DNA of 64,000 nt from an uncultured Sphingomonas sp. (GTDB taxonomy: Bacteria > Pseudomonadota > Alphaproteobacteria > Sphingomonadales > Sphingomonadaceae), in contig CAJYIX010000020.1 in assembly GCA_913775315.1 (NCBI GenBank), positions 1-64,000 on the forward strand, given 5' to 3'. The notes under the pieces are model-generated. The model saw nothing but the letters and a program-made list of their open reading frames with translations. It made no database searches and was not told the DNA's origin. A program made the translations under genes and the position numbers. This document shows positions 2,974 through 23,189 of the stretch, piece after piece; positions within the stretch are counted from its first letter, which is position 1, and each line of letters begins with the position of its first letter.

Positions 2974-3000
2974 GCCGACCCCCTCTTTGTTTTCAAACGC

Positions 3001-3363: not shown

Positions 3364-3427
3364 ACGCCCTCTCCCGATCCTGCCTGTTCGATGGCGGCGA
3401 GCTACGGCGGCGCTCGGTCGGCTCACA

Positions 3428-3443
3428 ATTGCCCGTTGGTACA
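3428..3443 (+). promoter_or_regulatory. Shared locus motif, site 1 (cytochrome c / aldehyde dehydrogenase)
   Basis: ATTGCCCGTTGGTACA lies in the divergent region between the small cytochrome c and the aldehyde dehydrogenase. It is the weakest of the five copies, matching ATTGNACYTTGGNAGG in the ATTG and TTGG blocks but less well elsewhere. It is 65 bases from the cytochrome start and 95 from the dehydrogenase start. Confidence 0.5.
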
Positions 3444-3537
3444 ATGGCGGTGCGGCGGGGGCGGGCGGATAGTCGGGACAGAAACGGACCCGGCCCCGCG
3501 ACGACAGCGGGCGCGTGATCGTCAGGAGGATGCCATC

Positions 3538-5058
3538 ATGTTGAGCCAAGCACTCGAACAACTGAAGGGCGACGTCGCGCTCCGCCCGCGCTACGACAAC
3601 TATATCGGCGGCCAGTGGACCGCGCCCGTCCGCGGCGAGTATTTCGACAACCCCTCCCCCATCACCGGCCGCACCGTCTGTCAGGTCGCGCGCGGCACCG
3701 CTGAGGACATCGAGCTCGCGCTCGACTCCGCGCACAAGGCGAAGGAGAAATGGGGCCGCACCAGCCCCGCCGACCGCGCCCGCGTGCTCCTCAAGATCGC
3801 CGACCGGATGGAGGCGCATCTCGACCGGCTGGCGCTGGCCGAGACGATCGACAACGGCAAGCCGATCCGCGAGACGACCGCCGCCGACCTGCCGCTCGCG
3901 ATCGACCATTTCCGTTATTTCGCCGGCTGCCTGCGCGCCCAGGAAGGCTCGATCGCCGAGATCGACCACGATACCGTCGCCTATCACTATCACGAGCCGC
4001 TGGGCGTCGTCGGCCAGATCATCCCGTGGAACTTCCCGCTGCTGATGGCGGTGTGGAAGCTGGCCCCGGCGATGGCGGCGGGCAACTGCATCGTCCTGAA
4101 GCCTGCCGAACAGACGCCGATGTCGATCATGGCGCTGATGGACCTGATCGGCGACCTCATTCCCGAGGGCGTCGTCAACGTCGTCAACGGCTTCGGGATC
4201 GAGGCGGGCAAGCCGCTGGCGCAAAACAAGCGGATCGCCAAGATCGCCTTCACCGGCGAGACGACGACCGGCCGCCTCATCATGCAGTACGCGACCGAGA
4301 ACCTGATCCCGGTGACGCTGGAACTGGGCGGCAAGAGCCCCAACATCTTCTTCGCCGACACGCTGGCCGAGGATGACGATTTCGCCGACAAGGTGATGGA
4401 GGGCTTTGCGATGTTCGCCCTCAATCAGGGCGAGGTCTGCACCTGCCCCAGCCGCGCGCTGGTGCACGAATCGATCTACGACCGCTTCATGGAACGCGCG
4501 ATCAAGCGGGTCGAGGCGATCAAGATGGGCTCCCCCCTCGACCCCGCGACGATGATCGGCGCACAGGCGTCGAACGACCAGCTCGAAAAGATCCTCTCCT
4601 ATATCGACATCGGCCGCGGTGAAGGCGCGAAGGTGCTGACCGGCGGCGAGCGTGCCAGCCTCGAGGGCGAATTGTCGGAGGGCTATTACGTCAAGCCGAC
4701 GATCCTCGAAGGGCACAATAAAATGCGCGTGTTCCAGGAGGAGATCTTCGGCCCCGTCGTCGCCGTCACCAAGTTCAAGGACGAGGAAGAGGCGCTGTCG
4801 ATCGCCAACGACACGCTCTACGGCCTCGGCGCCGGGGTCTGGTCGCGCGACGGAACGCGCGCCTATCGCTTCGGCCGCGCGATCCAGGCGGGGCGCGTCT
4901 GGACCAACTGCTATCATCTCTATCCGGCACATGCCGCGTTTGGCGGGTACAAGCAGTCGGGCATCGGGCGCGAAACGCACAAGATGATGCTCGACCATTA
5001 TCAGCAGACCAAGAACCTCCTGGTCAGCTACAGCCCAAAGGCATTGGGCTTCTTCTGA
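3538..5058 (+). CDS. exaC: NAD-dependent aldehyde (acetaldehyde) dehydrogenase, ExaC type
   Basis: This 506-residue aldehyde dehydrogenase is close to the ExaC/AldA acetaldehyde dehydrogenases of quinoprotein ethanol-oxidation pathways. Visible family features are [10 protein letters not shown] near the N-terminus, the [10 protein letters not shown] loop, FTGETTTGR in the Rossmann fold, the general base in LELGGKSPN, the catalytic cysteine in [11 protein letters not shown], and EEIFGPVV. It would oxidise the aldehyde made by the PQQ dehydrogenase to the acid, using NAD in the cytoplasm. The ATG at 3538 has a perfect AGGAGGA site seven bases upstream. Two tandem hairpins separate it from the DUF779 gene downstream. 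Confidence 0.95.
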
Positions 5059-5059
5059 T

Positions 5060-5128
5060 CGGACCGGCTGTCACTACTCTCCCTGCCGGTCCGGTCGGGC
5101 CGGGCGATGCCCAGCGTCGCCCGGCCCG
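5060..5128 (+). terminator. Two tandem hairpins after the aldehyde dehydrogenase
   Basis: Two perfect stems follow the stop codon. The first is 8 bp (5060-5067 with 5086-5093). The second is 12 bp of G and C (5096-5107 with 5117-5128, 9-base loop). The second is followed by CCTCCTTTCG, a poor U-tract. This could be an attenuating terminator or a processing and stability element that lowers expression of the downstream FIST and kinase genes relative to the dehydrogenase. Confidence 0.6.
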
Positions 5129-5146
5129 CCTCCTTTCGAAAGCTCG

Positions 5147-5542
5147 ATGATGGCCCCGCCGCCGCGTATCCTCGCCACCGACGCCGCCGTCGCGGTCATC
5201 GACGAGCTGCGCACGCGGCACGGGCCGCTGATGTTCCACCAGTCGGGCGGCTGCTGCGACGGGTCGGCGCCGATGTGCTATCCGGCGGGCGAGTTCCGCG
5301 TCGGCGGGCAGGACGTGCTGCTCGGCCATGTCGCGGGCGACGTGCCCGTCTGGATCGGCGCGGCGCAGTTCGAATATTGGCGGCATACGCAGGTGACGAT
5401 CGACGTCGTTCCCGGGCGCGGCGCCGGTTTTTCGCTGGAGGGGCCGACGGGGCGACGCTTCATCATCCGCAGCCGCGTATTTTCGGATGCGGAGGTCGAT
5501 ACGCTGGACGCCGCCGGCCCGCCGCCGCGCGGCGGCGACTGA
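5147..5542 (+). CDS. DUF779 protein associated with aldehyde dehydrogenase
   Basis: This 131-residue protein belongs to the DUF779 family, small proteins usually encoded next to ExaC-type aldehyde dehydrogenases. The cysteine-rich GGCCDGSAPMCYP segment and the VWIGAAQFEYWRHTQVTIDVVPGRGAGFSLEG block are the recognisable family features. The biochemical function is not established. The conserved cysteines and acidic residues would suit metal or redox chemistry, which is inference. The gene follows the aldehyde dehydrogenase after a hairpin region and is followed closely by the FIST gene. No strong ribosome-binding site is visible, and an ATG at 5150 is an alternative start. Confidence 0.88.
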   Translation: MMAPPPRILATDAAVAVIDELRTRHGPLMFHQSGGCCDGSAPMCYPAGEFRVGGQDVLLGHVAGDVPVWIGAAQFEYWRHTQVTIDVVPGRGAGFSLEGPTGRRFIIRSRVFSDAEVDTLDAAGPPPRGGD

Positions 5543-5592
5543 CGATGCTTCGCCAACCGCGCCCGAGGGTTGCGCGCCGCCCGCCACCTGTC

Positions 5593-6765
5593 ATGCTGGC
5601 GGCGATGCCAGAGACCGCGCCCCGCATCCGCCCCGCCGCCGTCACCCGCACCGCGCACTCGCGCGACCCTGACCCCGAACTGGCGGTCCGCACGATCTTT
5701 GCCGAACTCGACGCGCCGAGCCTGGCCGGCATCGTCCTTTTCGCCTCCAGCCGATACCCGATCGAGGCGCTGGAGGCTGCCCTCGTCCCCCGGTGCGAGG
5801 GGCTGACGCTGATCGGCTGCACCTCGTCCAGCGAGATCACCGAGGAGGGGTTCAGCGACGGCGCGCTCGTCGCGATCGGTTTTCCGCGCAGCGATTTCGC
5901 GCTGTCGGCCATCCGCTTCGACGCGCTCGACCGGATCGAGGCGGGCGAGGCGCAGGAGCGCGTCCGATCGCTGGTGGCGGAGGCGGGCGCGGATGCCCGG
6001 CGGCTGGGCGATGCGCTTCACCGCGCTGCCATCTTCCTCGTCGACGGGCTTTCGCACAGTGAGGAGATGCTGACCGTCAACGTCCAGGATGCACTGGGCG
6101 CGATCCCGCTGATCGGCGGTTCGTCGGGCGACGGCTTCGCCTTTCGCGAGACGTTCGTGCTCGACAATCGCGGCTTCCACCGCGACGCCGCACTGGTCGC
6201 CGTCCTGTCGAGCCCGCGGCCGATGCGCGTCTTCCGCTCGCAACCCTATGCCCCCGGCGATACCAAAATGGTCATCACCGGCGCCGACACCGCCGCGCGC
6301 ATCGTCAGCGAGATCAACGCCGAGCCCGCCGCTGCTGAATACGCCCGCCTCGTCGGCGTCCGGCCCGACGAACTCAGCCCCGCCATCTTCGCTTCCCGCC
6401 CGCCCATGGTGCGCGCGGGCGGCGAGCATTATGTCCGCTCGATCCAATCGGCCAATGCGGACGGCAGCCTCACCTTCTACTGCGCGATCGACGAGGGGCT
6501 GGTACTGACGCTGGGCGAGGCGGCGGACATCGTCGGCAGCATGCGCTCGCTCCTCGACGAGCTGGAGGAATCGGTGGGCGGCATCGACCGCATTCTCGGC
6601 TTCAATTGCGTGCTCAACCGCACCGAGATCGAGCAGCGCCAGCTCCTTCGCGACGTATCCCGCCTGATGACCGAGCACCGCGTCGCGGGCTTCAACACCT
6701 ATGGCGAGCAGTATCACGCGCTTCACGTCAACCAGACCTTTTCCGGCCTCGTGATCGGCCAGTGA
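5593..6765 (+). CDS. FIST-domain sensory protein
   Basis: This protein of about 390 residues has a FIST N domain (GLTLIGCTSSSEITEEGFSDGALVAIGF near residues 70-100 and IPLIGGSSGDGFAF near 170) and a FIST C domain ending in FNTYGEQYHALHVNQTFSG. FIST proteins are thought to sense small ligands and to feed signalling enzymes. Here the stop codon is fused as TGATG to the start of a hybrid histidine kinase, so the two are co-translated and probably work together. The pair lies between the aldehyde and alcohol dehydrogenases, so sensing a pathway substrate is a reasonable inference. The start is uncertain: ATGs at 5545, 5593 and 5605 are all in frame and none has a clear ribosome-binding site. Confidence 0.88.
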   Translation: MLAAMPETAPRIRPAAVTRTAHSRDPDPELAVRTIFAELDAPSLAGIVLFASSRYPIEALEAALVPRCEGLTLIGCTSSSEITEEGFSDGALVAIGFPRSDFALSAIRFDALDRIEAGEAQERVRSLVAEAGADARRLGDALHRAAIFLVDGLSHSEEMLTVNVQDALGAIPLIGGSSGDGFAFRETFVLDNRGFHRDAALVAVLSSPRPMRVFRSQPYAPGDTKMVITGADTAARIVSEINAEPAAAEYARLVGVRPDELSPAIFASRPPMVRAGGEHYVRSIQSANADGSLTFYCAIDEGLVLTLGEAADIVGSMRSLLDELEESVGGIDRILGFNCVLNRTEIEQRQLLRDVSRLMTEHRVAGFNTYGEQYHALHVNQTFSGLVIGQ

Positions 6766-8975
6766 TGGCACGCCGCGCGCCCACCCCCGCCGAGCTGGAA
6801 CTGGAGACGCTGCGCGCCGAGAATGTGAAGCTGCGTCGGATCAACGGCGTGCTGATGGACCGGGTGGAGCGATCGACCGACCTACAGGGCAACGCCTTTT
6901 CGCTCTTCGAAACCGCGATCACGCTCGAATCCAAGGTACAGGCGCGCACCCGCGACCTCGAGCACGCGCTCGGCGCGCTTGCCGCCAGCAACGCCGCGCT
7001 CACCCACGCCCGCGACGAGGCGACCGAGGCGCGCGCGCGGCTGGCCGATGCGATCGAGAGCATGTCCGAGGGGTTCGCGATCTTCGATGCCGAGGATCGG
7101 CTGGTGCTGTGCAACCGCACCTATCTCGACTTCTGGCCGCGCATCGCCGACCGGATCGTGCCGGGGATGCGCTTCGACGAGATCGCGCGGCTGATCGGCG
7201 ACGACCGCGCGGCGCTCGGCGCGATGGTGTCGCCCGACCGCTGGCTGTCCGAGCGGCTGGCGCAGCATTCGGTGGCGAGCGGGGGGCATGTCCACGCGCT
7301 CGCCGATGGTCGCTGGATCCAGGTCAACGAACTGCGCACCAGCGAAGGCGGCATCGTCGGCATCTACAACGACATTACCGAGGTGAAGGCGTCGGACGCC
7401 CGCGAGCGCGCCCGCGAACTGGCGCAGAAATCGGTGCTGCTGCAGGCGACACTCGACAACATCCGCCTCGGCGTCTGCGTCTACGATGCCGATCGCCGGC
7501 TGATCGCGTGGAACCGCTCGCTGCTGGCGGTCATCGGCCTGCCCGTCGACGGCATCCCGCGCATCGCGTCGCATGATGGCCTCGTCGCCACCTGTGCCGA
7601 ACTCAACGGCCCGATGGAGGATGGCGAGCCCTTGGGCTGGCTGTCGGTGGGCGAGATCGTGACCACGCGTCGCCACGCCAGCGGCCGGTCGATCGAGGTG
7701 CGCCGCTCCGCCATGCCCGATGGCGGCATGGTGATGAGCTTCGAGGATATCACTGAGCGCCTGCGTGCGGCCGAGGCGCTGGAGGCCCGCGTCGCCGAGC
7801 GCACCGCCGACATCGCCGCGGTCAACGACCAGCTCACCGCGCAGGTGCGCGAACGCATCGCCGCCGAGGAAGCGATGCGAGAGGCGATGCAGGCGGCCGA
7901 GGAGGCCAATCGTTCCAAGACCCGCTTCCTCGCCGCCGCCAGCCACGACCTGCTCCAGCCGCTCAACGCCGCGCGGCTGTTCGTCTCGGCATTGGGCGAG
8001 CGGCGGCTGGCGGCGGCCAATGCCGGCCTCGTCCGCCAGATCGATTCCGCGCTCGATTCGGTCGAGGACCTGCTCGAGGCGCTGCTCGAAATCTCGAAGC
8101 TCGATGCCGGCGCGGTGCGGCCCAACGTCATCGACTTTCCGCTGGCCGAAACGATGCGCCACATGCGCGCGGAGTTTACGCCGCTGGCGCGCGAGCGCGG
8201 GCTCACCCTCGCCTTCGACGACAGTTGCGATGCGTGGGTACGGTCGGACCCGCGGCTGCTGCGCCGGATCGTCCAGAACTTCATCTCCAACGCGCTGCGC
8301 TACACCGATACGGGCGGCGTCACCGTACGCTGTCACGCGGGCGCCAGCATGCTGCGGATCGAGGTGATCGACACCGGCCCCGGCATCGACCCCGCGCATC
8401 ACCGCGAGATCTTCGCCGAGTTCCGGCGCCTCGACCGCGACCGGCCGGTCAAGGGGATCGGCCTCGGCCTCGCCATCGTCGAACGCGCGGGGCGGATGCT
8501 CGGCCACCCGATCGGCCTCGCATCCGCGCCCGGCCGCGGCGCCACCTTCACCGTCGCGGTCCCGCTCGGCCGTGCGCAGGCCGTGGGTGCCGCCGCGACC
8601 CCCGCGGCGATGCGCGGCGGCCTAGCGGGCCGGACGGTGCTCGTCCTCGACAACGAGGAAGCGATCCTGTCGGGGATGAAAGTGATCCTGAGCGGCTGGG
8701 GCTGCAACGCGATCTGTGTCGCCGACCGGGCAGGGGCGATCGCGGCGGCGGGGCGCGGGGGGATCGACGCGATCGTCGCGGACTATCACCTCGATGCCGG
8801 CGACACCGGCGATGCGGTGGTACGCGCGCTCGGCCTCGGCATCCCGACGATCATCGTCACCGCCGACCGCACCGCCGAACTGAAGGACCGGCTGCGCGGC
8901 GAGGGCTTCCACTGGCTCAACAAGCCGGTAAAGCCCGCGCAGCTACGCGCGCTCCTGAGCGCGATCGTCCGCTAG
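6765..8975 (+). CDS. PAS hybrid histidine kinase with C-terminal receiver domain
   Basis: This is a 736-residue soluble hybrid kinase. The order is an N-terminal coiled coil (10-90), a PAS domain (about 92-205), a second PAS (about 225-335), a coiled coil, a HisKA domain with phospho-acceptor His394 in ASHDLLQPL, and a HATPase domain (NFISNALRY, DTGPGI, GLGLAIV). The end is a receiver domain (about 620-736) whose acidic pair reads DN and whose probable phospho-Asp is in IVADYHLD. No membrane segment is seen. It resembles kinases that control quinoprotein ethanol oxidation in Pseudomonas (ErcS' type). The TGATG junction with the FIST gene and the convergent LuxR-type regulator make a FIST-kinase-regulator module likely. 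Confidence 0.93.
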   Translation: MARRAPTPAELELETLRAENVKLRRINGVLMDRVERSTDLQGNAFSLFETAITLESKVQARTRDLEHALGALAASNAALTHARDEATEARARLADAIESMSEGFAIFDAEDRLVLCNRTYLDFWPRIADRIVPGMRFDEIARLIGDDRAALGAMVSPDRWLSERLAQHSVASGGHVHALADGRWIQVNELRTSEGGIVGIYNDITEVKASDARERARELAQKSVLLQATLDNIRLGVCVYDADRRLIAWNRSLLAVIGLPVDGIPRIASHDGLVATCAELNGPMEDGEPLGWLSVGEIVTTRRHASGRSIEVRRSAMPDGGMVMSFEDITERLRAAEALEARVAERTADIAAVNDQLTAQVRERIAAEEAMREAMQAAEEANRSKTRFLAAASHDLLQPLNAARLFVSALGERRLAAANAGLVRQIDSALDSVEDLLEALLEISKLDAGAVRPNVIDFPLAETMRHMRAEFTPLARERGLTLAFDDSCDAWVRSDPRLLRRIVQNFISNALRYTDTGGVTVRCHAGASMLRIEVIDTGPGIDPAHHREIFAEFRRLDRDRPVKGIGLGLAIVERAGRMLGHPIGLASAPGRGATFTVAVPLGRAQAVGAAATPAAMRGGLAGRTVLVLDNEEAILSGMKVILSGWGCNAICVADRAGAIAAAGRGGIDAIVADYHLDAGDTGDAVVRALGLGIPTIIVTADRTAELKDRLRGEGFHWLNKPVKPAQLRALLSAIVR

Positions 8976-8982
8976 CGCACGG

Positions 8983-9639
8983 TCACTTGCGCGTCGGGAT
9001 CACCGGCGGAAAGCCGACCCGGTTGGCGAGGATCACCGCCTGCGTCCGGTTGAATACCTCGAGCTTGGCGAGCACGGCCGAAACGTGCGCCTTCACCGTC
9101 GTCATCGAGACGTCGAGCTCATAGGCGATCTGCTTGTTGAGCCGCCCGGCCACCATCAGGCCGAAGACGACGCGCTGCTGCGGGGTGAGCAGGTCGATGC
9201 GCCGACGGATGCTCGCCCCAGCCGCATCCTCGGTCGTGATCTCCTCGGCGATATCGGCGGGGACATAGACCTCGCCGTCGAGCACCGCGCGCAGCGCCTC
9301 GGCGATCGCCGAGCGGCGCAGCGACTTGGGCACGAACCCCGCCGCCCCGTGCGCGAGCGCCCCGCGCACCAGCGCCGCGGTATGCGATCCCGACACCACG
9401 ACGACGGGCGTCGCCGGAAACTGCGCGACCATGCGGTCGAGCCCATCGAAGCCCGTGGCACCCGGCATGTTGAGGTCGAGCAGGACGAGGTCGAACTCCG
9501 CCCCCTCGCCCAGCACGCCCAGCGCCTCGTCCAGCGTCGCCGCCTCGAACAATTCGCATCCCTCGAACGCGAGCGAAATCACCGCGCGCAGCCCATCGCG
9601 GACCAGCGGGTGATCGTCGGCGATGAGCACGCGGTCCAC
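8983..9639 (-). CDS. LuxR-type (NarL/FixJ) response regulator
   Basis: This 218-residue regulator has an N-terminal receiver domain (ADDHPLV, phospho-Asp in VLLDLNMPG, PKS near residue 110) and a C-terminal LuxR helix-turn-helix (LTPQQRVVFGLMVAGRLNKQIAYELDVS, then TTVKAHVSAVLAKL). The GTG at 9639 is chosen because GGAGG stands about eight bases upstream and translation then begins directly at the receiver domain. It is 86 bases upstream of the alcohol dehydrogenase stop and convergent with the hybrid kinase. By position and type it is the likely output regulator of the locus, comparable to ExaE/ErbR/AgmR-like regulators of PQQ ethanol oxidation. It is the prime candidate to bind the shared promoter motif. 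Confidence 0.93.
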   Translation of the reverse strand: MDRVLIADDHPLVRDGLRAVISLAFEGCELFEAATLDEALGVLGEGAEFDLVLLDLNMPGATGFDGLDRMVAQFPATPVVVVSGSHTAALVRGALAHGAAGFVPKSLRRSAIAEALRAVLDGEVYVPADIAEEITTEDAAGASIRRRIDLLTPQQRVVFGLMVAGRLNKQIAYELDVSMTTVKAHVSAVLAKLEVFNRTQAVILANRVGFPPVIPTRK

Positions 9640-9725
9640 GGCTTCCCCCTCCCTCGAACCCGCCGATCGTATCGGGTGACACGCCGCACGGGAAGGGAGG
9701 GAGGCGACGCCTCCCCCCAGACCCA

Positions 9726-11489
9726 TCATGCCTTGGGCAGCTTGAACACCCAGAGCGAGCCGCCCTGGTTGATGTGGCCGACCGACTTGGCGACCTCTCC
9801 GCCCCAGAGCGGCACCGCGCCGCCCCAGCCGGACATGACCGCGACATATTGCTCGCCGTCCTGTTCCCAGGTGACCGGCGATCCGACGACGCCCGACCCG
9901 GTGTTGAACTTCCAGAGTTCCTTGCCGGTCTTCGCATCGAACGCCTTCAGATACCCCTCGGGCGTGCCCGTGAAGACCAGGTTGCCCGCGGTCGTCAGCA
10001 CCCCGCCCCACAGCGGCGCCTTGTTCTTGTATTCCCAGACGATCTTGCCCGTCATCGGGTCCATCGCGCGCAGCACGCCGATATGGTCCTCATAGAGCGG
10101 CTTGATCGTGAAGCCCGCCCCCAGATAGGCCGCGCCCTTCTTGTAGGCGATCGGCTCGTTCCAGATGTCCATGCCCCATTCGTTCGAGGGGATGTAGAAC
10201 AGGCCGGTCTGCTGGCTGTACGCCATCGGCATCCAGTTCTTGCCGCCGAGGAAGCTGGGCGCGGAGAACACCGTTGTCCCCTTCTCCGTCGTCGGCGGGC
10301 CGGGGCGGTTGGCGTCGATGTAGATCGGCTTGCCGTCCTTGGTATAGCCCGACGCCCAGGTCGTCTTCGACACGAACGGCTTGGCCGAGACGAACTTGCC
10401 GTTGGTGCGGTCGAGGACGAAGAAATAGCCGTTGCGATCGGCCTTGGCGCCCAGCTTCCGGCCGCCGGCATCGAACGAGATGAACTCGTTCACCCCGTCG
10501 AAGTCCCAGCCGTCGTGCGGCGTCGTCTGGTAATGCCACTTGATCTCACCCGTCTCGGGATCGAGAGCGAGCGTCGAGGAGGTGTAGAGGTTGTTGCCGG
10601 GGCGCAGGTGGCTGTTCCACGGCGCGGGATTGCCAGTGCCCATGTAGATGAGCTTGGTATCCGGGTCGTAAGTCCCGCCAAGCCAGGTGGCGCCGCCGCC
10701 ATTCTCCCACTGATTACCCTGCCAGGTCGCATTGAGCTTGCCCGTCATGGTCGAGGGCTGGCCATTGAGCTGGCCCATATGCCCCTCGATCGTCGGGCGC
10801 GACCAAACGAGTTCGCCCGTGTTCACGTCGCGCGCCTCGACCTTGCCGACGATGCCGAACTCGCCGCCCGAATTGCCGTAGATGACCTTGCCGTTGACGA
10901 TCATCGGCGCGGCGGTGAAGCTGTAGCCGGCCTGATAGTCGGCCAGCTTCTTGTTCCAAATGACTTTGCCCGTCATCCGGTTAAGCGCGACCAGATGCGC
11001 GTCGAGCGTGCCGAAGATGATCTTGTCGCCATAGATGGCAGCACCGCGGTTGACGACGTCGCAGCACGGCATGATCCCGTCGGGCAGGCGCGCGTCGTAC
11101 TGCCACTTCTCCTCGCCCGTCCGAGCATCGAACGCGAACAGGCGGGAGTAGGAGCCGGTGACGTAGATCATGCCGTCATAGACGATCGGCTGCGCTTCCT
11201 GCCCGCGCTGCTTCTCGCCGCCGAGCGAGGCGGAAAAGGCAGGCACCAGCCTGGCGACGTTGCTGGCGGTCAGCTTCGTCAGCGGGCTGAACCGCTGTCC
11301 GCGAAGGCCCATGCCATAGGTGAGCACGTCGCCCGGCGTCTTTTCATCATTGAGGATGTCGGCGTCGGTCGGCCCGGCCGCCGCCGCTACGGGCGCGGCG
11401 GGTTTCGCATCCTCGCGCGCCATCGCCGTTCCCGCCGTCGCCGCCAGCACCAGTGCCGCGCTCGAGACCGCGCTCATCAACCTCTTCAT
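9726..11489 (-). CDS. PQQ-dependent alcohol dehydrogenase, probable lanthanide type
   Basis: This is a 587-residue periplasmic quinoprotein dehydrogenase with a signal peptide (about residues 1-24) and an eight-bladed propeller of tryptophan-docking repeats such as [17 protein letters not shown] and TGKELWKF. The vicinal cysteine pair Cys142-Cys143, found over the PQQ ring in this family, is present. Metal ligands can be placed at Glu210 (GGEFG), Asn287 (GNPAPWN) and Asp329 in WDFDGVNE. A further aspartate, Asp331, is the residue that separates lanthanide enzymes (XoxF, PedH, ExaF; Asp-x-Asp) from calcium enzymes (Ala or Ser there). There is no fused cytochrome domain, so it needs a separate acceptor, probably PedF. 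The neighbouring aldehyde dehydrogenase and acetyl-CoA synthetase favour ethanol or another short alcohol over methanol. The shared motif lies 65 bases upstream. Confidence 0.93.
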
Positions 11490-11551
11490 GCCTCTTCCCC
11501 TCAGGTTTCTGCTCTCTCGTTCGGATGCTACGCCGGGCCCTCGCCCCCACA

Positions 11552-11567
11552 ATTGGACCTTGGAAGG
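11552..11567 (+). promoter_or_regulatory. Shared locus motif, site 2 (alcohol dehydrogenase)
   Basis: ATTGGACCTTGGAAGG lies in the gap between the alcohol dehydrogenase start (11489) and the stop of the upstream binding-protein gene. It matches ATTGNACYTTGGNAGG fully. This placement suggests that the dehydrogenase has its own regulated promoter in addition to read-through from pedF. Confidence 0.6.
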
Positions 11568-11576
11568 ATGCGGGCG

Positions 11577-12428
11577 TCAGGTGAGGAGCGGCGGTCGGTA
11601 TTCGACGCCGTGCGCGGCGAACACGCGGGCCAGCTCGCCCGATTTCGCCAGCTCCTCCATGATCCGCTCGATCTCGTCGCCCAGGTCGCGGCTGTCGTCC
11701 TTGACCGCCATGCCGACGTTCCAGCCGGGGCTGGTCATCGCCGGCAGCGGCCCCTTGCGCAGCGTCAGGCGATCGCCCGCCGCCTTGATCCCCGCCTCGA
11801 CCTGCGCGCGCGTCGCCACCGCCGCGTCGGCTTGTCCGGCCGCGACCGCCGCGACCGCCGCCTCGCCCGACAGCTTGTTCTTCACGTCGCCGCGCAAGAC
11901 CCCGCCGAACGACCCCGACAGATAGAAGTCGGGAATGCTGTCGAGCTCAGCGACGAGCTTCTTGCCCTTCAATTGCGGCGGCGGCACCTCGCAATCGGTG
12001 GTGGCGCGGTTGCAGACCATCGCGAAACTCTCGCGGTAATAGGGCGCGATCAGCACCGCGCGGTCATTCCGCTGGCCGAGCACGCGGTCATAGGGGACGT
12101 GCATCATCACGTCGCCCGGCGCCTGTCCCAGCAGCGACCCGCGCCAGACCATGTTGCGCAGGTCGTCGTCGACCGACTCGTCGGCGATATACTGGATCGC
12201 CTCCCCCCGCACGCCGAGCTTCGAGGCGATCAGCTTGCCGAGATCGACGTCGATCCCGACCAGCCTACCTTCCCGCTCCGCCGCCCAAGGAGCAAAGTCG
12301 CGATAGACCGCGATGCGCATCACGCCGAGCGCGCGGATCTTTGCCAGCGGCGCGGCGACCAGCGGCGCGGCGACCGCGCCGGCCATCGCCGCCGCCGCAC
12401 CGCGCACGAAGCCGCGACGCGACAGCAT
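11577..12428 (-). CDS. Quinoprotein-associated periplasmic substrate-binding protein
   Basis: This 283-residue protein has the two-lobed fold of family 3 solute-binding proteins (LGVMRIAVYRDFAPWAAE, LVGIDVDLGKLIASKLGV, VAAVAAGQADAAVATRAQVE). It begins with a twin-arginine signal (SRRGFVRG), suggesting export in folded form. It belongs to the group of putative ABC-type binding proteins found only near quinoprotein dehydrogenases. XoxJ of methanol oxidisers is the best-known relative and is thought to help mature the dehydrogenase rather than feed a transporter. No ABC permease or ATPase gene is nearby, which supports a transporter-independent role. It lies 4 bases downstream of pedF. Confidence 0.9.
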   Translation of the reverse strand: MLSRRGFVRGAAAAMAGAVAAPLVAAPLAKIRALGVMRIAVYRDFAPWAAEREGRLVGIDVDLGKLIASKLGVRGEAIQYIADESVDDDLRNMVWRGSLLGQAPGDVMMHVPYDRVLGQRNDRAVLIAPYYRESFAMVCNRATTDCEVPPPQLKGKKLVAELDSIPDFYLSGSFGGVLRGDVKNKLSGEAAVAAVAAGQADAAVATRAQVEAGIKAAGDRLTLRKGPLPAMTSPGWNVGMAVKDDSRDLGDEIERIMEELAKSGELARVFAAHGVEYRPPLLT

Positions 12429-12432
12429 CGCC

Positions 12433-12870
12433 TCAGGACTCCTGGTGCTTTGTGTCGAGCCAGGAGCGGATCGCCCAGCCCGCCTTCTGCCCGATGATGT
12501 CGCCGAACGGCGGCATGAACACCTTGCCGTCGCGCGAGGCGCCGTGGCGATAGCGGCCTATGAACCACTCGTCCCCCGCCTCGCCGACCTCGAGATAGCG
12601 CAGGTCGGGGGCGATGCCGCCGCTGATCGCCTCCAGCCCGTGGCAACGCGCGCAATTACCGCCATAGGCGGACTCGCCGATCTTGATGGCGTCGGGATTG
12701 CCGCGATACGGATTCACCGTCCGCCACTCCTCGCCGATATCGGGCAGCTTCGAGGTATCGACCGGCTGCGGCGTCACATTGTCGTGCGCCGTCACCTTGA
12801 GCGCGAAGGTGGTGGTGAACAGGAGCGTCGCCGCGATCATCGCGGCCCGCTCGTAACGCCTCGTCATCAT
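12433..12870 (-). CDS. pedF: Cytochrome c-550, PedF type
   Basis: This is a 145-residue periplasmic cytochrome c with an N-terminal hydrophobic export segment (about residues 7-24) and a haem motif CARCH. The segment GESAYGGNCARCHGLEAISGG and the methionine in KVFMPPFGD fit the PedF-type c-550 that accepts electrons from PQQ ethanol dehydrogenases. The ATG at 12870 has GGGGAGAGG just before it; ATG 12867 directly follows and 12882 is a longer option. It is the first gene of the pedF-binding protein-dehydrogenase series. It is divergent from the YVTN gene over a region holding the best copy of the shared motif. Confidence 0.92.
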   Translation of the reverse strand: MMTRRYERAAMIAATLLFTTTFALKVTAHDNVTPQPVDTSKLPDIGEEWRTVNPYRGNPDAIKIGESAYGGNCARCHGLEAISGGIAPDLRYLEVGEAGDEWFIGRYRHGASRDGKVFMPPFGDIIGQKAGWAIRSWLDTKHQES

Positions 12871-12927
12871 GCCTCTCCCCATTCGGGCTTTCGCGGCGGA
12901 GTGTGCTGCGCAGCATGGGGACGCGAC

Positions 12928-12943
12928 ATTGTACTTTGGTAGG
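12928..12943 (+). promoter_or_regulatory. Shared locus motif, site 3 (pedF / YVTN protein)
   Basis: ATTGTACTTTGGTAGG lies in the 109-bp divergent region between pedF and the beta-propeller gene. It is one of the copies that define the consensus ATTGNACYTTGGNAGG. It is 58 bases from the pedF start and 37 from the propeller gene start. Confidence 0.6.
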
Positions 12944-12979
12944 TTCGCGGTCGCGCGCGCGGCGCGGTATTCTCAGAGG

Positions 12980-13936
12980 ATGCGCAGCCTGATCCTCGCC
13001 GCCCTGGTCGCGGTGCCCGCCCCTGCCCTTGCAGAGACGATCTACGTCTCGAACGAGCGCGGCAATTCCATCACCGTCATAGACGCCGCGACGATGAAGC
13101 CCGTCGCCACCTGGCCGGTCGGCGCACGCCCCCGCGGCCTGACGATGAGCCGCGACGGCAAGTACCTCTATGTCTGCGCATCGAACGACCATGCTGTGCA
13201 GGTGATCGACCGCGCGACGGGCAAGCTCCTCTACGACCTCCCCTCGGGCGAGGATCCCGAGCAGTTCGCGCTCTCTGTCGATGGCAAGACGTTGTTCGCC
13301 GCGAACGAGCGCGACGCCGCCGTCACCGCGATCGACATTCCCGGCCGCCGCGTCGCCTTTCAGGTCGATGTCGGCATCGAACCCGAAGGGATGGCGACCA
13401 GCCCCGACGGCAAATGGGTGATCGCGACGTCGGAGACGGACAACAAGGCGCACTGGATCGACATCGCCACGGGCAGGATGGTCGCAGAAACCGAAGTCGA
13501 CCAGCGCCCCCGCCACGCCGAGTTCACCGCCGACGGCCGCGAATTGTGGGTGACGTCGGAGATCGGCGGCACGCTCCAGATCATCGACACCGCGACGCGC
13601 AAGGTCGCGCACAGCATCGCGTTCAAGCCCCCTGGCGTCACCTCTGACAAGGTGTTGCCGGTGGGTGTCCACTTCACTCCCGATGGGCGCAAGGCACTGG
13701 TCGCGCTCGGCCGCGCGAACATGGTCGCGATCGTCGATACCGCAACCCGCGCAGTCACGGGCTACGTCCCGGTCGGCCAGCGCGTCTGGCACCTTGGTAT
13801 CAGTCGCGACGGGACCCGCGCCTATGCCGCCAACGGCCTGTCCGACACGCTGTCGGTGATCGACATCGCCGCGGCCAGGGAAATCGCCCAGATTCCAACG
13901 GGTGATGCGCCTTGGGGCGTGGTCGTCGCCCCCTGA
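12980..13936 (+). CDS. YVTN beta-propeller protein of PQQ-dependent catabolism
   Basis: This is a 318-residue exported beta-propeller with a signal peptide (residues 1-19, ending ALA). It carries repeated YVTN-type blades such as ETIYVSNERGNSITVIDAA, YLYVCASNDHAVQVIDRA and AYAANGLSDTLSVIDIA. It matches the beta-propeller family seen beside quinoprotein dehydrogenases in many proteobacteria, where its exact task is unknown. A role in dehydrogenase assembly, or in holding partners in the periplasm, is plausible but unproven. It is transcribed away from pedF from the region containing shared motif 3. Confidence 0.9.
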   Translation: MRSLILAALVAVPAPALAETIYVSNERGNSITVIDAATMKPVATWPVGARPRGLTMSRDGKYLYVCASNDHAVQVIDRATGKLLYDLPSGEDPEQFALSVDGKTLFAANERDAAVTAIDIPGRRVAFQVDVGIEPEGMATSPDGKWVIATSETDNKAHWIDIATGRMVAETEVDQRPRHAEFTADGRELWVTSEIGGTLQIIDTATRKVAHSIAFKPPGVTSDKVLPVGVHFTPDGRKALVALGRANMVAIVDTATRAVTGYVPVGQRVWHLGISRDGTRAYAANGLSDTLSVIDIAAAREIAQIPTGDAPWGVVVAP

Positions 13937-13953
13937 CCGCTGACAGCGGCGGG

Positions 13954-13969
13954 TCGCCCAAAGTGCAAT
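13954..13969 (-). promoter_or_regulatory. Shared locus motif, site 5 (porin-like gene)
   Basis: Read on the minus strand the site is ATTGCACTTTGGGCGA, matching the ATTG-N-ACTTTGG half of the shared consensus. It is 79 bases upstream of the porin-like gene. A short GC hairpin (13972-13979 with 13983-13990, 8-bp stem) follows directly and may end the propeller transcript. Confidence 0.5.
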
Positions 13970-14047
13970 ATCGGGGGGCCCCGCCCCCCGGCACCCTTGC
14001 CCGACCGAGCTGCCGCCTGGGCAGCCACACAAGGGGAGGGAAAACCG

Positions 14048-15463
14048 ATGCGATCCACCGCGCGGTGGCTTTCGGCCACCATGCTTGCCGGGTGCCTGAC
14101 GAGCTTTGCGACACCGGCCTCGGCCCAGACGGCCACGCTCGACCTGCTGCAGAAGCTGAAGGAAAAGGGCATCCTCTCGGACGAGGAATATGACGCCCTC
14201 GCCGCCCGCGAAGCCGCCGCCCCGGCCGCGGCGACCGCCACCACCGTCACGACCGGCACCCCCGCCTCGCCGCAGCAGGCGGCGGCACAGGCGCTCGACG
14301 ACAAGCGGATGGTGCGCATGACCGAAAGCGGCATCGGCTTCGAGATGGGCGGCGTGCAGCTCAAATTCTCGGGATCGGTCAACGGCTTCTACGTGCATGA
14401 TAATGGCGACAGCGGCGGGCCGGGCAGCACCGTCGTCGGCGGGCTGGCGACGGTCGGCGGTAACAGCTCGTCGATCCGAAACGGCCTGCTTCCCGGCTTC
14501 TTCAAGGTGGACGTGACCACCAACCAGGGCGGCTGGGACGTGGGTGCGCATTTCGGCATGTATCCGGGCATCAACAGCGTGACCGGCGTCGGCGGCGCCA
14601 ATTCGGCGGGCAGCCCGACCGCGCTGTCGACCGCGGGCATCGACTTCCGCCAGACCTATCTCACCTTCGGCAAGGCGCAGTTCGGCGAGATCAAGATCGG
14701 CCGCGACATCGGCCTGTTCGCGTCGGAGGCGATTCTGAACGACATCACGCTCCTTGCCAGCGGCACGCCCGCGGGCAACGTCGCGCCGTCGAACACGACG
14801 CTGGGGCGGATCGGCATCGGCTATATCTACACCGACTTCCAGCCGCAGATCACCTATACCAGCCCCAAGTTCGGCGGGCTGCAATTCTCGGCCGGGGTGT
14901 TCCAGCCGCTGACGACGATCGGCGAGACCGAGTACAACGCGACGCCCGGCTTCCAGGGCAAGGTCGTCTACGATTATGCCGGCGGCGGGTTCGGCGCGCA
15001 TGTCTGGGCCTCGGGCCTCATCCAGAGCCATGACGGCATTGCAGGATCGCCGAGCTATACCGGCCGCGCGTTCGACGTGGGCGCGAAGCTGACTGCGGGG
15101 TCGGCGAGCCTGCTCGGCTATTACTACATGGGCACTGGTGTCGGCACGACGGGGCTGTTCATCCTCTCGACCGACGCGCTGGGGCGCAAGCGCGACAGCA
15201 ACGGCTTCTACGTCCAGGGCACCTACGGCATCGGCAAGCTGACACTGGGGGCGAGCTATGGTGCGAGCTATCTCGACCTGGCGGACGGGGAGGTGAACCC
15301 GACGCTGCTCGACAACAATTCGAGCTGGGTAGGCCAGGTCCGCTACGGCCTGACGAGCTGGATCACATTGCTCGGCGAATACACGCACACGCGGGCCGAG
15401 GCGCAGAACAACAACCGCGCGACCAGCGACGCGCTGGCGCTGGGGGCGATCCTGTTCTTCTGA
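14048..15463 (+). CDS. Outer membrane beta-barrel (porin-like) protein
   Basis: This 471-residue protein has a signal peptide (about residues 1-29, ending ASA), a short helical DLLQKLKEKGILSDEEYDAL segment near the mature N-terminus, and then a glycine-rich beta-barrel. Alternating aromatic residues (FSGSVNGFYVHD, FRQTYLTFGKAQFGEIKIGRD) and a terminal phenylalanine (GAILFF) are typical of outer membrane porins. The substrate is not evident. Being inside the quinoprotein locus with a copy of the shared motif upstream, it may admit alcohols or cofactors to the periplasm (inference). An intrinsic terminator lies just after the stop. Confidence 0.85.
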   Translation: MRSTARWLSATMLAGCLTSFATPASAQTATLDLLQKLKEKGILSDEEYDALAAREAAAPAAATATTVTTGTPASPQQAAAQALDDKRMVRMTESGIGFEMGGVQLKFSGSVNGFYVHDNGDSGGPGSTVVGGLATVGGNSSSIRNGLLPGFFKVDVTTNQGGWDVGAHFGMYPGINSVTGVGGANSAGSPTALSTAGIDFRQTYLTFGKAQFGEIKIGRDIGLFASEAILNDITLLASGTPAGNVAPSNTTLGRIGIGYIYTDFQPQITYTSPKFGGLQFSAGVFQPLTTIGETEYNATPGFQGKVVYDYAGGGFGAHVWASGLIQSHDGIAGSPSYTGRAFDVGAKLTAGSASLLGYYYMGTGVGTTGLFILSTDALGRKRDSNGFYVQGTYGIGKLTLGASYGASYLDLADGEVNPTLLDNNSSWVGQVRYGLTSWITLLGEYTHTRAEAQNNNRATSDALALGAILFF

Positions 15464-15469
15464 GGGCGG

Positions 15470-15500
15470 ACGGGCGGCGGCGACGCCGCCCGTTTCCTTA
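15470..15500 (+). terminator. Intrinsic terminator of the porin-like gene
   Basis: A perfect 10-bp stem (15470-15479 with 15484-15493, loop GCGA) is followed by TTTCCTTA. It starts 7 bases after the porin stop codon and separates two convergent genes. Confidence 0.75.
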
Positions 15501-16439
15501 TCGGTCGGCGCGCGGGAAAAGCTCGGTCTCGAGCCGCGGGTAGAAGTGCGAGACGGACCGCTGTAGCTCGTACCGCGCTGCCTTGACGCGATCGAACCGC
15601 GCGGGGATCGCCACCTCGCCCGCCGCGACCATGTCGAGGCCGGCCGTAATGGAGGCGCGCAGGCTCCCCTCCAGCCAGTCGAGCCAGTCCAGCGTTTGCG
15701 CGATCGCCGCCTGCCCGCCGGGATCGAACGGCCCGTGCCCTGGGAGCAGCCCCTTGTGCGGCATCGACGCCAGCGTGCCCAGCGCCTGTCGCCAGCGCGC
15801 CGGATCGGCATCGGGTGTGGAGGGCGCACGGTCGTGAAAGACGAGGTCCCCGGCGATCATCGTCCCCGTCGCCATGTCGGTGACGACCAGATCGGCCGGG
15901 CTGTGCCCCGCCATCGGCGCGAAGGCCAGCCGCCGCCCGGCCACCACGCGCTCGCCCACGGTCACGGTTGCGGCGGGCAGCACCGGCTCGGTCCCGCGCA
16001 TCCAGTCGCCCAGCAGCCGGTACATGCCGTCCGCATAGCCCGCCGACGTCGCCTGTAGCTCGCGGCGCAGATCGGGCGTGCCCGCCACCTCGGCGTTCGC
16101 GAAGGCGCCGGCGGCGAAGCCGTGGTCGGGATGGAGATGCGTCACGAACACATGCCCGACCGGCTTGCCCGTCAGTTTGCGCACCGCCGCATCGAGTGCC
16201 CGGCCGTAGCGCAGCGACGGCCCGCAATCGATCAGGATCGCCGCCTCGTCCCCCGCCAGGATCGCCAGATTGGCGATCGCGCCGCCATTGCCTCGCTCGA
16301 TCGGTTCATCGGACCCGCGCACCATCCAGAGGCCATCGCCGACCGCGACCGGTTCGATCCGATAGTCGAGCGCCTGTGCCCGCGCCGCGACGGGCAGCGC
16401 GGCCATCCCGCCGAGCAGGGTGCGCCGCGTCAGTCTCAT
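15498..16439 (-). CDS. Quinoprotein relay system metallo-beta-lactamase-fold hydrolase
   Basis: This is a 313-residue exported metallo-beta-lactamase-fold protein. The N-terminus MRLTRRTLLGG is Tat-like and is followed by a hydrophobic segment ending ARAQA. The zinc motif THLHPDHG is intact, with further metal ligands in MAGHSPADLVV, MIAGDLVFHD and LLPGHGPFD. It fits the zinc metallohydrolases that accompany SoxYZ-like carriers in quinoprotein gene clusters. Its start overlaps the stop of the SoxYZ-like gene by four bases (ATGA), so the two are made together. The substrate is unknown; in the proposed relay the hydrolase acts on something bound to the carrier. Confidence 0.9.
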   Translation of the reverse strand: MRLTRRTLLGGMAALPVAARAQALDYRIEPVAVGDGLWMVRGSDEPIERGNGGAIANLAILAGDEAAILIDCGPSLRYGRALDAAVRKLTGKPVGHVFVTHLHPDHGFAAGAFANAEVAGTPDLRRELQATSAGYADGMYRLLGDWMRGTEPVLPAATVTVGERVVAGRRLAFAPMAGHSPADLVVTDMATGTMIAGDLVFHDRAPSTPDADPARWRQALGTLASMPHKGLLPGHGPFDPGGQAAIAQTLDWLDWLEGSLRASITAGLDMVAAGEVAIPARFDRVKAARYELQRSVSHFYPRLETELFPRADR

Positions 16440-17185
16440 GGCATCGCCTGCACCGCGACCCTGCCCTCGATCTCGCGCCCGTTGGTGTCGCGCCCTCTGA
16501 TCGTCAGCGTGTCGCCGGCGGCGGCGGGTACGATCAGGCCGATCGCCGGATCCTCCGCGACCGAGGCCCAAAGCTTCATCGACCCCAGCTTGATCTCGCC
16601 GCGCGAAATCGACAATTCCTCGACATGATAGAGCGGCGTGTTGCCGACGAGGCCGGTGTCCATCGGATGCCGGATCGCGACCCGCAGCCGCGCCTCCGCA
16701 CCGACGAGCACCGCCCGCGCGCGCACTTCGCCCAGATGCTCGGCCCAGTCGCCCTTCACCCGGCTGACCGGCGGCGCCGAACAGCCGCCGCCCGCCGCGT
16801 CGATCCATGCGCCGTTGACGTGCCAGCGCCCGTCGCCGGTCAGCACCGCCGCGCGCACCGGTGTGCGCTGGTCGAGCTTGATCCGCACCGACACCACCGG
16901 CGCCGCGCCCGTCGGGGCATAGTCGATCGCGACGGGAATGGGGTTTAGGTCGACGAGAAGGACGACGCGCTTCACGTCCGGCAGCGCGGTCGCGTCGATG
17001 GCGACGGGAAAGACGCGCTGGTTTTCCGCCAGCATCGGCATGTCGACGACGACCCGCCGGTCGAACTCGACCGGCGCACCCGCGAACAGCACGCGCGCAT
17101 GGTCGGCCCACATCGGCGAGCCGAGCGGATCGGCGGGCAGCGCCGCCGCCATCGCGACCGGCGCGAACAATAGCGTCGCGAGCAT
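16436..17185 (-). CDS. Quinoprotein-associated SoxYZ-like carrier protein
   Basis: This 249-residue exported protein has a signal peptide (about residues 1-14) and fuses SoxY-like and SoxZ-like halves. The SoxY part carries the segment AAGGGCSAPP, whose cysteine would be the swinging-arm attachment point. The SoxZ-like half is seen around VRARAVLVGAEARLRVAIRHPMDTG. In sulfur oxidation SoxYZ carries intermediates on that cysteine, but the carrier's cargo in quinoprotein clusters is unknown. ATG 17185 is preferred, with GGAGAGGGTG immediately before it; a GTG at 17188 is the alternative. The shared motif overlaps the promoter region about ten bases further out. Confidence 0.88.
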   Translation of the reverse strand: MLATLLFAPVAMAAALPADPLGSPMWADHARVLFAGAPVEFDRRVVVDMPMLAENQRVFPVAIDATALPDVKRVVLLVDLNPIPVAIDYAPTGAAPVVSVRIKLDQRTPVRAAVLTGDGRWHVNGAWIDAAGGGCSAPPVSRVKGDWAEHLGEVRARAVLVGAEARLRVAIRHPMDTGLVGNTPLYHVEELSISRGEIKLGSMKLWASVAEDPAIGLIVPAAAGDTLTIRGRDTNGREIEGRVAVQAMP

Positions 17186-17193
17186 CACCCTCT

Positions 17194-17209
17194 CCTACCA
17201 AGGTAGCGT
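17194..17209 (-). promoter_or_regulatory. Shared locus motif, site 4 (SoxYZ-like / CxxxCW protein)
   Basis: On the minus strand this reads ACGCTACCTTGGTAGG, matching the ACCTTGGTAGG part of the shared consensus exactly but not the ATTG part. It lies in the 78-bp divergent region between the SoxYZ-like and rhodanese-like genes. It is only 9 bases from the SoxYZ-like start. Confidence 0.5.
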
Positions 17210-17263
17210 TTACCCCCGCCCCCGCCCGCCTACCATCCGACCAACGGACGAGGGAGGCGGGCA

Positions 17264-17797: not shown

Positions 17798-17842
17798 AGC
17801 CGCAACCCCGCCCGCCTGTCACGATCGCCGCGGGGAGAAACG

Positions 17843-23187: not shown

Positions 23188-23189
23188 CG

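What the first reader, a model, noticed from the sequence alone, without database searches (positions are those of the whole stretch)
3428..17209. A shared 16-bp motif marks five promoters of the quinoprotein locus
Five intergenic regions of the locus carry related sites: ATTGCCCGTTGGTACA (3428-3443), ATTGGACCTTGGAAGG (11552-11567), ATTGTACTTTGGTAGG (12928-12943), ATTGCACTTTGGGCGA (13954-13969, minus) and ACGCTACCTTGGTAGG (17194-17209, minus). The consensus is ATTGNACYTTGGNAGG. They precede the genes for cytochrome c/aldehyde dehydrogenase, alcohol dehydrogenase, PedF/YVTN, the porin and SoxYZ-like/CxxxCW, all within about 100 bases of a start. A LuxR-type response regulator is encoded in the same locus, so a single regulon is likely. 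I know of no described operator of this sequence, but I could not search for one.
Basis: partly seen in the sequence, partly recalled or inferred. Interest (0 to 1): 0.85.

Follow-up and report, generated by a model that had tools for sequence, protein, structure and literature searches.

The report
Shared control switch for alcohol genes
A short DNA sequence repeated in front of the alcohol-oxidation genes of this sphingomonad is a real, widely conserved control site, very probably the docking site of a known type of regulator (AgmR/ErbR) whose target sequence I did not find in the papers I could search.

Summary
All five strings are at the stated places, but read better as an 18-bp site on the transcribed strand, core CCAARGTnCAAT, pointing at one gene each: cytochrome c, PQQ-ADH, PedF, porin-like, CXXCW. 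The exact core CCWARGTNCAAT occurs 3 times in the 3.25-Mb genome, all here. A matrix from the five sites finds same-strand sites before 30 of 36 ADH and 31 of 32 pedF relatives, 0 of 36 RR, 0 of 33 SBP. A -10-like TANNNT lies 21-22 nt downstream in 74 of 162 sites, against about 0.5 at other spacings, placing the site near -42, a classic activator position. Among 30 PedF loci the site is found in 19 of 24 whose genome has an AgmR-class regulator and in 0 of 6 without (threshold set afterwards). Pseudomonas-like genomes carry a variant palindrome before matching genes. Best reading: the 218-residue regulator is an AgmR/ErbR-type activator and this is its operator; binding is untested. The CXXCW site and a sixth candidate before a TonB receptor are weak. 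Side finding: 12 of 13 sphingomonad-family PedF genomes tested lack PqqC.

The parts
3428..3445 (-). operator of the cytochrome c gene, followed on the same strand by a 100-aa protein gene and a TonB-receptor gene; also reads on the + strand towards the ALDH gene
   Evidence: ATTGTACCAACGGGCAAT, 21.7 bits on -, 11.7 bits on +; ATG 64 nt downstream on -, TAGCTC 23 nt downstream
11552..11569 (-). operator of the PQQ alcohol dehydrogenase gene
   Evidence: ATCCTTCCAAGGTCCAAT, 27.0 bits; TAGCAT 21 nt downstream, ATG 62 nt downstream
12928..12945 (-). operator of pedF (cytochrome c-550)
   Evidence: AACCTACCAAAGTACAAT, 22.7 bits; CACACT 22 nt downstream, ATG 57 nt downstream
13952..13969 (+). operator of the porin-like gene
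   Evidence: GGTCGCCCAAAGTGCAAT, 17.4 bits; CACCCT 22 nt downstream, ATG 78 nt downstream
17192..17209 (+). weaker operator of the CXXCW (rhodanese-like) gene, next to the divergent SoxYZ-like gene
   Evidence: CTCCTACCAAGGTAGCGT, 11.1 bits with the foreign matrix; TACCAT 21 nt downstream, ATG 54 nt downstream
17780..17797 (+). sixth, weak candidate operator before the TonB receptor at 17843; overlaps the end of the CXXCW gene
   Evidence: GTCATACCAAAGGCCTAG, 13.7 bits, only 1 bit above two non-promoter matches of the window; CACGAT 22 nt downstream, ATG 45 nt downstream
8983..9639 (-). response regulator, receiver + GerE (LuxR-type) domains, proposed binder (AgmR/ErbR type)
   Evidence: Pfam Response_reg 79 bits, GerE 62 bits; co-occurrence
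6765..8975 (+). histidine kinase with PAS domains and a C-terminal receiver-like stretch, proposed partner of the regulator (PedS1-like by neighbourhood)
   Evidence: PAS_7, HisKA, HATPase_c over cut-off; Response_reg 26.6 bits, under its cut-off of 30.2
5593..6765 (+). FIST-domain protein (NosP-like by neighbourhood)
   Evidence: Pfam FIST 119.6 bits, FIST_C 77 bits
9726..11489 (-). PQQ alcohol dehydrogenase, lanthanide (PedH) type by sequence
   Evidence: TIGR03075 782 bits; PDB 6zcw (PedH) 874 bits, WDFDGVN against WDFSGNN in 1flg
12433..12870 (-). cytochrome c-550 PedF
   Evidence: TIGR04494 200.6 bits, cut-off 122
3001..3363 (-). cytochrome c
   Evidence: best NCBIfam NF043008 82.5 bits, below its cut-off 240
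3538..5058 (+). acetaldehyde dehydrogenase ExaC
   Evidence: NF050026 937.5 bits, cut-off 900
12980..13936 (+).
   Evidence: TIGR03866 421 bits, cut-off 287
14048..15463 (+). porin-like protein (name from the finding; no family found)
   Evidence: no match in NCBIfam or Pfam at E 0.001
15498..16439 (-). quinoprotein relay system zinc metallohydrolase 1
   Evidence: TIGR04558 330 bits, cut-off 300
16436..17185 (-). SoxYZ-like carrier
   Evidence: TIGR04557 200 bits, cut-off 140
17264..17797 (+). PQQ-dependent catabolism-associated CXXCW protein
   Evidence: TIGR03865 141 bits, cut-off 128
17843..20101 (+). TonB-dependent receptor, nearest solved structures YncD/PqqU
   Evidence: 6v81 60.8 bits, 9c4o 58.3 bits; published PqqU signature not met
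614..2674 (-). TonB-dependent receptor downstream of the cytochrome c gene on the same strand
   Evidence: Pfam TonB receptor and plug; no solved relative at E 0.001

Best explanation
The sites are the operator of the LuxR/NarL-type response regulator encoded at 8983-9639, an AgmR/ErbR-type activator. The kinase next to it (6765-8975) phosphorylates it when alcohol is sensed; it then binds an 18-bp imperfect inverted repeat (best conserved part CCAARGTnCAAT) whose right half overlaps the -35 element, centred near -42 from the predicted start of transcription, and recruits RNA polymerase to the promoters of the periplasmic alcohol-oxidation system: cytochrome c, PQQ-ADH, PedF, porin-like protein, CXXCW and possibly a TonB receptor. 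Shown here: the sites, their orientation and spacing, their conservation, their rarity in the genome and the co-occurrence with the regulator. Inferred: binding, phosphorylation, activation rather than repression, alcohol as the signal, and the start sites.
For: Same-strand sites at 10 bits or more before ADH 30 of 36, pedF 31 of 32, porin 19 of 31, cytc 6 of 9, ALDH 13 of 22, against RR 0 of 36, SBP 0 of 33, HK 0 of 27, MBL 0 of 14; column-permuted matrices give means of 0.07-1.1. Conservation falls off two bases beyond the site. More distant loci: pedF 32 of 41, cytc 9 of 9 at 9 bits or more. -10-like TANNNT at 21-22 nt in 74 of 162 sites, mean 0.47 at other spacings. In 199 genomes of the same family, 11 of 12 with PedF have the exact 14-mer CCAARGTNCAATNG against 48 of 187 without, and 17 of the 21 hits in PedF genomes lie within 12 kb of pedF. 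Regulator profile: 19 of 24 PedF loci in genomes with a hit of 238 bits or more carry the site, 0 of 6 below that. DNA-binding helix TTVKAHVSA[IV]L shared by the window and the Pseudomonas-like loci, with small changes in others. In the Pseudomonas-like stretch L140 a variant palindrome lies before pedF, pedH, the PQQ_ABC_bind gene, the CXXCW gene and ALDH: 5 hits against 0.37 per shuffled 20 kb. AgmR of P. putida is described as activating this gene cluster (PMC12997753, passages).
Against: No binding or expression data. The 238-bit threshold was chosen after seeing the scores (at 200 bits: 19 of 25 against 0 of 5; at 245: 18 of 23 against 1 of 7), the profile holds 5 rows from the genomes tested, and the rank correlation over all 30 loci is weak (0.30, P 0.11), because 4 pseudomonad-like loci carry the variant and G047 has the regulator but no site at pedF. 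Related genomes are not independent. The site is only weakly symmetric: outside the G-C pair at columns 7/12 the dyad's pairs are complementary in 17-62% of sites. Porin and ALDH sites mostly lack TANNNT (1 of 29, 0 of 17). In distant loci ADH has a site in only 13 of 43, SoxYZ in 1 of 19, porin in 0 of 6, ALDH in 1 of 5; RR has one in 1 of 30 and SBP in 4 of 41. Opposite-strand matches are frequent before some genes (ALDH 12 of 22, pedF 6 of 32, SoxYZ 7 of 13, CXXCW 5 of 12), partly because these lie next to divergent genes. Two window sites (CXXCW, TonB receptor) are weak.
Confidence: 0.83

Rival explanations
1. The site is real but is bound by another transcription factor encoded elsewhere, for example an ErdR-like regulator, with the local regulator acting upstream or on other genes.
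For: The regulator's own promoter has no site (0 of 36); many genomes hold several NarL-type paralogues; four Azospirillum loci (L045, L047, L048, L050) have sites at pedF but no regulator match in the fetched stretch; the best NCBIfam match of the regulator is the ErdR model, below its cut-off.
Against: All 19 of the 30 PedF loci with a site of 9 bits or more lie in genomes with an AgmR-class hit of 238 bits or more, and the 6 without such a hit lack it; 36 of the 37 loci of the sphingomonad set hold the regulator, directly after ADH.
Confidence: 0.11
2. The sequence is a promoter element of an alternative sigma factor rather than an activator site.
For: Fixed spacing to a -10-like element and orientation towards the gene at ADH, pedF and porin.
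Against: 18 bp is long for a -35 element; TTG and TANNNT fit the housekeeping type (recalled); in the Pseudomonas-like pedF promoter the strongest copy is a near-palindrome 22 bp further upstream.
Confidence: 0.03
3. The binder is the second LuxR-type response regulator of the window (22531-23187).
For: It is encoded about 5 kb from the last site, beside a kinase-like frame.
Against: Only 3 weak matches (29-33% identity) in 100 related loci at E 1e-15, against 75 loci for the local regulator.
Confidence: 0.015
4. Chance resemblance or general promoter composition.
Against: Conservation before the same genes in relatives with several control genes at zero; 3 exact copies in the genome, all here.
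Confidence: 0.01

Closest known systems
AgmR / ErbR / PedR1 regulon of Pseudomonas (exa/ped cluster)
   Same: LuxR-type response regulator in a cluster with a hybrid kinase, rhodanese-like, SoxYZ-like, metallohydrolase, PedF and PQQ-ADH genes; Pseudomonas-like stretches carry a related palindrome before matching genes
   Different: The regulator at the AgmR position of L140 is 44% identical to the window's; the outer half-site differs (about TTG-TACC here, CTAG/C-TACC there); most sphingomonad-family PedF genomes tested lack PqqC, whereas AgmR activates the pqq operon in P. putida according to PMC12997753 (passages)
ErdR (NCBIfam NF041830)
   Same: Best NCBIfam match of the window's regulator (187 bits) and of the one in L140 (178 bits)
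   Different: Cut-off 390 bits reached by neither; P. aeruginosa ErdR controls acsA and other promoters (PMC9927353, passages)
NarL, DevR/DosR, VraR family operators
   Same: Same regulator family; inverted repeat about a two-base centre (recalled for DevR)
   Different: Half-site sequence differs (recalled)
PqqU (E. coli PQQ importer)
   Same: Among the two nearest solved structures to the TonB receptor at 17843
   Different: Published signature Y99/R304/R365 not met in 9 of 9 aligned sequences

Membership tests
AgmR/ErbR-type response regulator | receiver domain plus GerE domain | tested here: met
   Pfam 79 and 62 bits, both over cut-off
AgmR/ErbR-type response regulator | gene neighbourhood with kinase and quinoprotein genes | tested here: met
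AgmR/ErbR-type response regulator | closer to the Pseudomonas AgmR-position regulator than to other NarL paralogues | tested here: inconclusive
   a profile of 16 rows, including the window's own and two f44 rows, gives 306 bits here and 313-322 in the eight f44 genomes, next paralogue in this genome 165.5 bits; the window is in the profile and no tree was built
AgmR/ErbR-type response regulator | binds and activates the promoters | not testable with these tools
   needs protein and mutants
AgmR/ErbR regulon | pqq biosynthesis operon under the same control | tested here: not met
   no PqqC match and no PqqE match over cut-off in this genome, so there is nothing to control; in two Pseudomonas-like genomes no site in 3.7 kb around pqqC
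ErdR NF041830 | score over curated cut-off | tested here: not met
   187 against 390 bits
PqqU | Y/F/W99, R304, R365 (PMC12124388, passages) | tested here: not met
   receptor at 17843 and 8 relatives: Q or V at 99, no R at 304, F at 365 in 9 of 9; sequence alignment at 25-28% identity, so positions are uncertain. Receptor at 614 and 14 relatives: G at 99 in 15 of 15, no R at 365
Lanthanide-dependent PQQ-ADH (PedH type) | extra Asp two residues after the catalytic Asp (recalled) | tested here: met
   WDFD aligned to PedH WDFD, ExaA has WDFS; metal use untested

The most novel reading that the evidence does not exclude
In sphingomonads that cannot make PQQ, the AgmR-type regulon has been rewired: instead of the PQQ synthesis operon, the operator drives outer-membrane receptors that import PQQ (or a lanthanide chelate) through a TonB receptor that is not PqqU. 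That would make alcohol oxidation here dependent on cofactor scavenged from neighbours and switched on together with its importer, in a class that PMC12124388 describes as largely lacking PqqU.
Probability: 0.35. Interest if true: 0.7.

Novelty: new member of a known kind. Interest (0 to 1): 0.6.

Why it matters
It gives a concrete candidate operator for a regulator class (AgmR/ErbR) known by genetics since 1991 (reference seen); none of the passages I read prints a target sequence. With it, regulons of periplasmic alcohol oxidation can be read from sequence across Alpha- and part of Gammaproteobacteria, and the question of how PQQ-dependent enzymes are run in bacteria without PQQ synthesis becomes directly testable.

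Tried and rejected
Attribution to YVTN: YVTN upstream regions of relatives have 6 of 32 same-strand hits, and 31 of 32 on the strand that reads towards pedF, so the site serves pedF. Attribution to SoxYZ: same-strand sites in 6 of 13 relatives, but in the window the site points at CXXCW.

Regulon members elsewhere in the genome: 15 one-mismatch core hits and 5 two-mismatch hits of the long pattern; 4 of these 20 fetched loci hold a match of 9 bits or more (L095, L099, L100, L101), not followed further; numbers are at background. Autoregulation: no site before the regulator gene, 0 of 36 in the sphingomonad set, 1 of 30 in the distant set. pqq operon in Pseudomonas-like genomes: no site around pqqC in L159 and L160. 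Tandem sites: a second match at -15 in 8 of 29 porin sites and at -71 or -39 in 7 and 5 of 63 pedF sites, not explained. Motif strings in print: 6 strings searched anywhere in the library, 34 papers hold one, 25 were listed and none of these is on bacterial gene regulation by title. Subscription papers on exa promoters (Gliese 2004, Promden 2009, Gliese 2010; seen only as reference-list entries) could not be read and might show such a site. No structure prediction and no tree was run.
Full report
The place. The window is part of a 3.25-Mb draft genome (44 contigs, 98.2% complete) whose closest ADH loci are from sphingomonads. The stretch 614-20101 is a ped/exa-type cluster: ExaC aldehyde dehydrogenase, PQQ alcohol dehydrogenase, PedF, SoxYZ-like carrier, zinc metallohydrolase, CXXCW protein and the PQQ-associated beta-propeller protein reach their NCBIfam cut-offs; a FIST protein, a PAS kinase and a LuxR-type response regulator lie among them. 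The porin-like protein matches no family in NCBIfam or Pfam. The order resembles the Pseudomonas ped cluster.

The observation. Written on the strand that is transcribed, they line up as an 18-bp site around CC-AA/AC-GGT-n-CAAT, each 54-78 nt before one start codon: cytochrome c, ADH, PedF, porin-like protein and CXXCW. The exact core CCWARGTNCAAT occurs three times in the genome, in the ADH, PedF and porin promoters of this locus and nowhere else; with up to one mismatch there is no excess over the reversed pattern (18 against 23). So the first condition that would have refuted the finding is not met.

Conservation. I fetched 80 loci around relatives of the ADH (591 candidates, best 80 kept) and mapped 17 window proteins onto them. 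A matrix from the five window sites was scanned over 200 nt before each gene in 37 mostly sphingomonad loci. Same-strand matches of 10 bits or more: ADH 30 of 36, pedF 31 of 32, porin 19 of 31, ALDH 13 of 22, cytc 6 of 9, SoxYZ 6 of 13, CXXCW 5 of 12, YVTN 6 of 32, TBDR2 3 of 12; TonB 2 of 20, EthD 0 of 9, DUF779 1 of 22, FIST 2 of 27, HK 0 of 27, RR 0 of 36, SBP 0 of 33, MBL 0 of 14. Opposite-strand matches: ADH 1 of 36, porin 1 of 31, pedF 6 of 32, ALDH 12 of 22, SoxYZ 7 of 13, CXXCW 5 of 12, YVTN 31 of 32 (this is the pedF site). Matrices with permuted columns average 0.07 to 1.1 loci per gene, although single permutations reached up to 14 (all). Across 103 distinct sites the information is confined to the site, the two bases after it and a TA-n-n-n-T-like stretch about 22 nt downstream. 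A second matrix from 81 foreign sites, the window excluded, scores the window sites 11.1 to 27.0 bits. In the 43 more distant loci (Azospirillum, Methylobacterium, Alteromonas and others) it finds same-strand sites of 9 bits or more before pedF in 32 of 41 (opposite strand 15), cytc 9 of 9, ADH 13 of 43, SBP 4 of 41, ALDH 1 of 5, SoxYZ 1 of 19, RR 1 of 30, YVTN 2 of 37, porin 0 of 6, CXXCW 0 of 8, MBL 0 of 19, HK 0 of 20, FIST 0 of 15.

Whole genomes. In 199 genomes of the same family, 12 have PedF over the cut-off. The exact 14-mer CCAARGTNCAATNG is found in 11 of these 12 (21 places) and in 48 of the other 187 (64 places, counted by hand from the list); 17 of the 21 places in PedF genomes lie within 12 kb of pedF. 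The exceptions are G223 (no hit), G407 and G496 (hits elsewhere only) and one of three hits in G561.

Promoter geometry. In 162 sites before ADH, pedF, porin, cytc and ALDH, TANNNT begins 21 or 22 nt after the site in 74, and 23 nt after it in 8 more; the mean for neighbouring pairs of other spacings is 0.47. By gene at 21-22: ADH 35 of 43, pedF 33 of 61, cytc 5 of 12, porin 1 of 29, ALDH 0 of 17; the looser [TC]ANNNT is present in 108 of 162. If TANNNT is the -10 element, the site is centred near -42 and its right half overlaps the -35 element, as for an activator that touches RNA polymerase directly (inference). Base-pair symmetry of the site is modest.

The regulator. The response regulator is nearest NarL among solved structures (101 bits) and scores 187 bits to the ErdR model, whose cut-off is 390; the regulator at the AgmR position of L140 behaves the same way (178 bits). 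The DNA-binding helix is nearly the same from sphingomonads to Pseudomonas-like loci. A phylum sample of 398 genomes gave 34 with PedF over the cut-off; for 30 of them a pedF locus was at hand and its 300 nt upstream were scanned: 19 have a same-strand site of 9 bits or more, 4 an opposite-strand one. A profile of 16 regulator relatives was run on these 30 genomes and on 15 of the same genus or family without PedF over the cut-off. The 15 have no hit above 204 bits. Of the 30, 24 have a hit of 238 bits or more and 19 of these carry the site; none of the 6 others does (P 0.0008, not corrected for kinship; threshold chosen after seeing the data; 5 of the 16 profile rows come from these genomes; rank correlation 0.30, P 0.11). 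Four of the five misses are f44 genomes with a variant site; the fifth is G047.

Pseudomonas. Family f44 is Pseudomonas or very near (inference): its PedH-like protein scores 1108 bits to the PedH structure, against 874 bits for the window's ADH. A symmetrised matrix from eight f44 pedF and pedH sites finds 1, 5, 4, 3, 2, 3 and 4 matches in the seven f44 stretches L139-L145, against 0.37 per shuffled 20 kb of L140. The five in L140 lie before pedF, the pedH-like gene, the PQQ_ABC_bind gene, the CXXCW gene and ALDH; the first two were in the matrix, so three are independent. At pedF of L140 a second, degenerate copy lies 22 bp downstream of the palindrome and is followed after 22 nt by TACCAT.

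Cofactor. PqqE is not found over its cut-off in this genome, and PqqC is absent from 12 of 13 sphingomonad-family PedF genomes tested, three of them single-contig assemblies, but present in G407 and in both f44 genomes tested. The sixth candidate site precedes a TonB receptor whose nearest solved structures are YncD and the PQQ transporter PqqU; 4 of 8 relatives of that receptor have a site of 9 bits or more, and 6 of 21 relatives of the other receptor; 13 of the remaining 15 follow the porin gene on its strand. The published PqqU signature is not met. PMC12124388 reports PqqU as largely absent from Alphaproteobacteria and suggests that these are mainly PQQ producers (passages); the genomes tested here suggest that some may be scavengers by another route. 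The substrate of either receptor is unknown.

Verdict. The finding is real and the interpretation largely right. It is the probable operator of a known kind of regulator, not found in the open papers I could search, so I call it a new member of a known kind.

Noticed in passing
whole genome G000 and relatives: PQQ-dependent ADH cluster without PqqC in 12 of 13 sphingomonad-family PedF genomes tested: probable PQQ auxotrophs.
   Followed up: partly
17843-20101 and 614-2674: Two TonB receptors beside or within the regulon; the first is nearest YncD/PqqU among solved structures but fails the published PqqU signature.
   Followed up: partly
9726-11489: The ADH has the extra Asp of lanthanide-type enzymes (WDFD).
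   Followed up: partly
L140:10410-10490 (minus strand): Pseudomonas-like pedF promoter has a palindrome and a degenerate second copy 22 bp downstream, then TACCAT after 22 nt.
   Followed up: partly
porin upstream regions of related loci: Second match 15 bp upstream of the main site in 8 of 29 porin promoters; unexplained.
   Followed up: no
22531-25664: A second response regulator beside a kinase-like frame on the minus strand, nearly absent from the 100 related loci.
   Followed up: partly
G328, G231, G246, G019, G294, G397: PedF genomes without an AgmR-class regulator hit (238 bits or more) and without the site: presumably another control system.
   Followed up: no
G407:C6:103481-105582: Two exact 14-mer sites about 2 kb apart on another contig than pedF: possibly a second regulon locus.
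   Followed up: no
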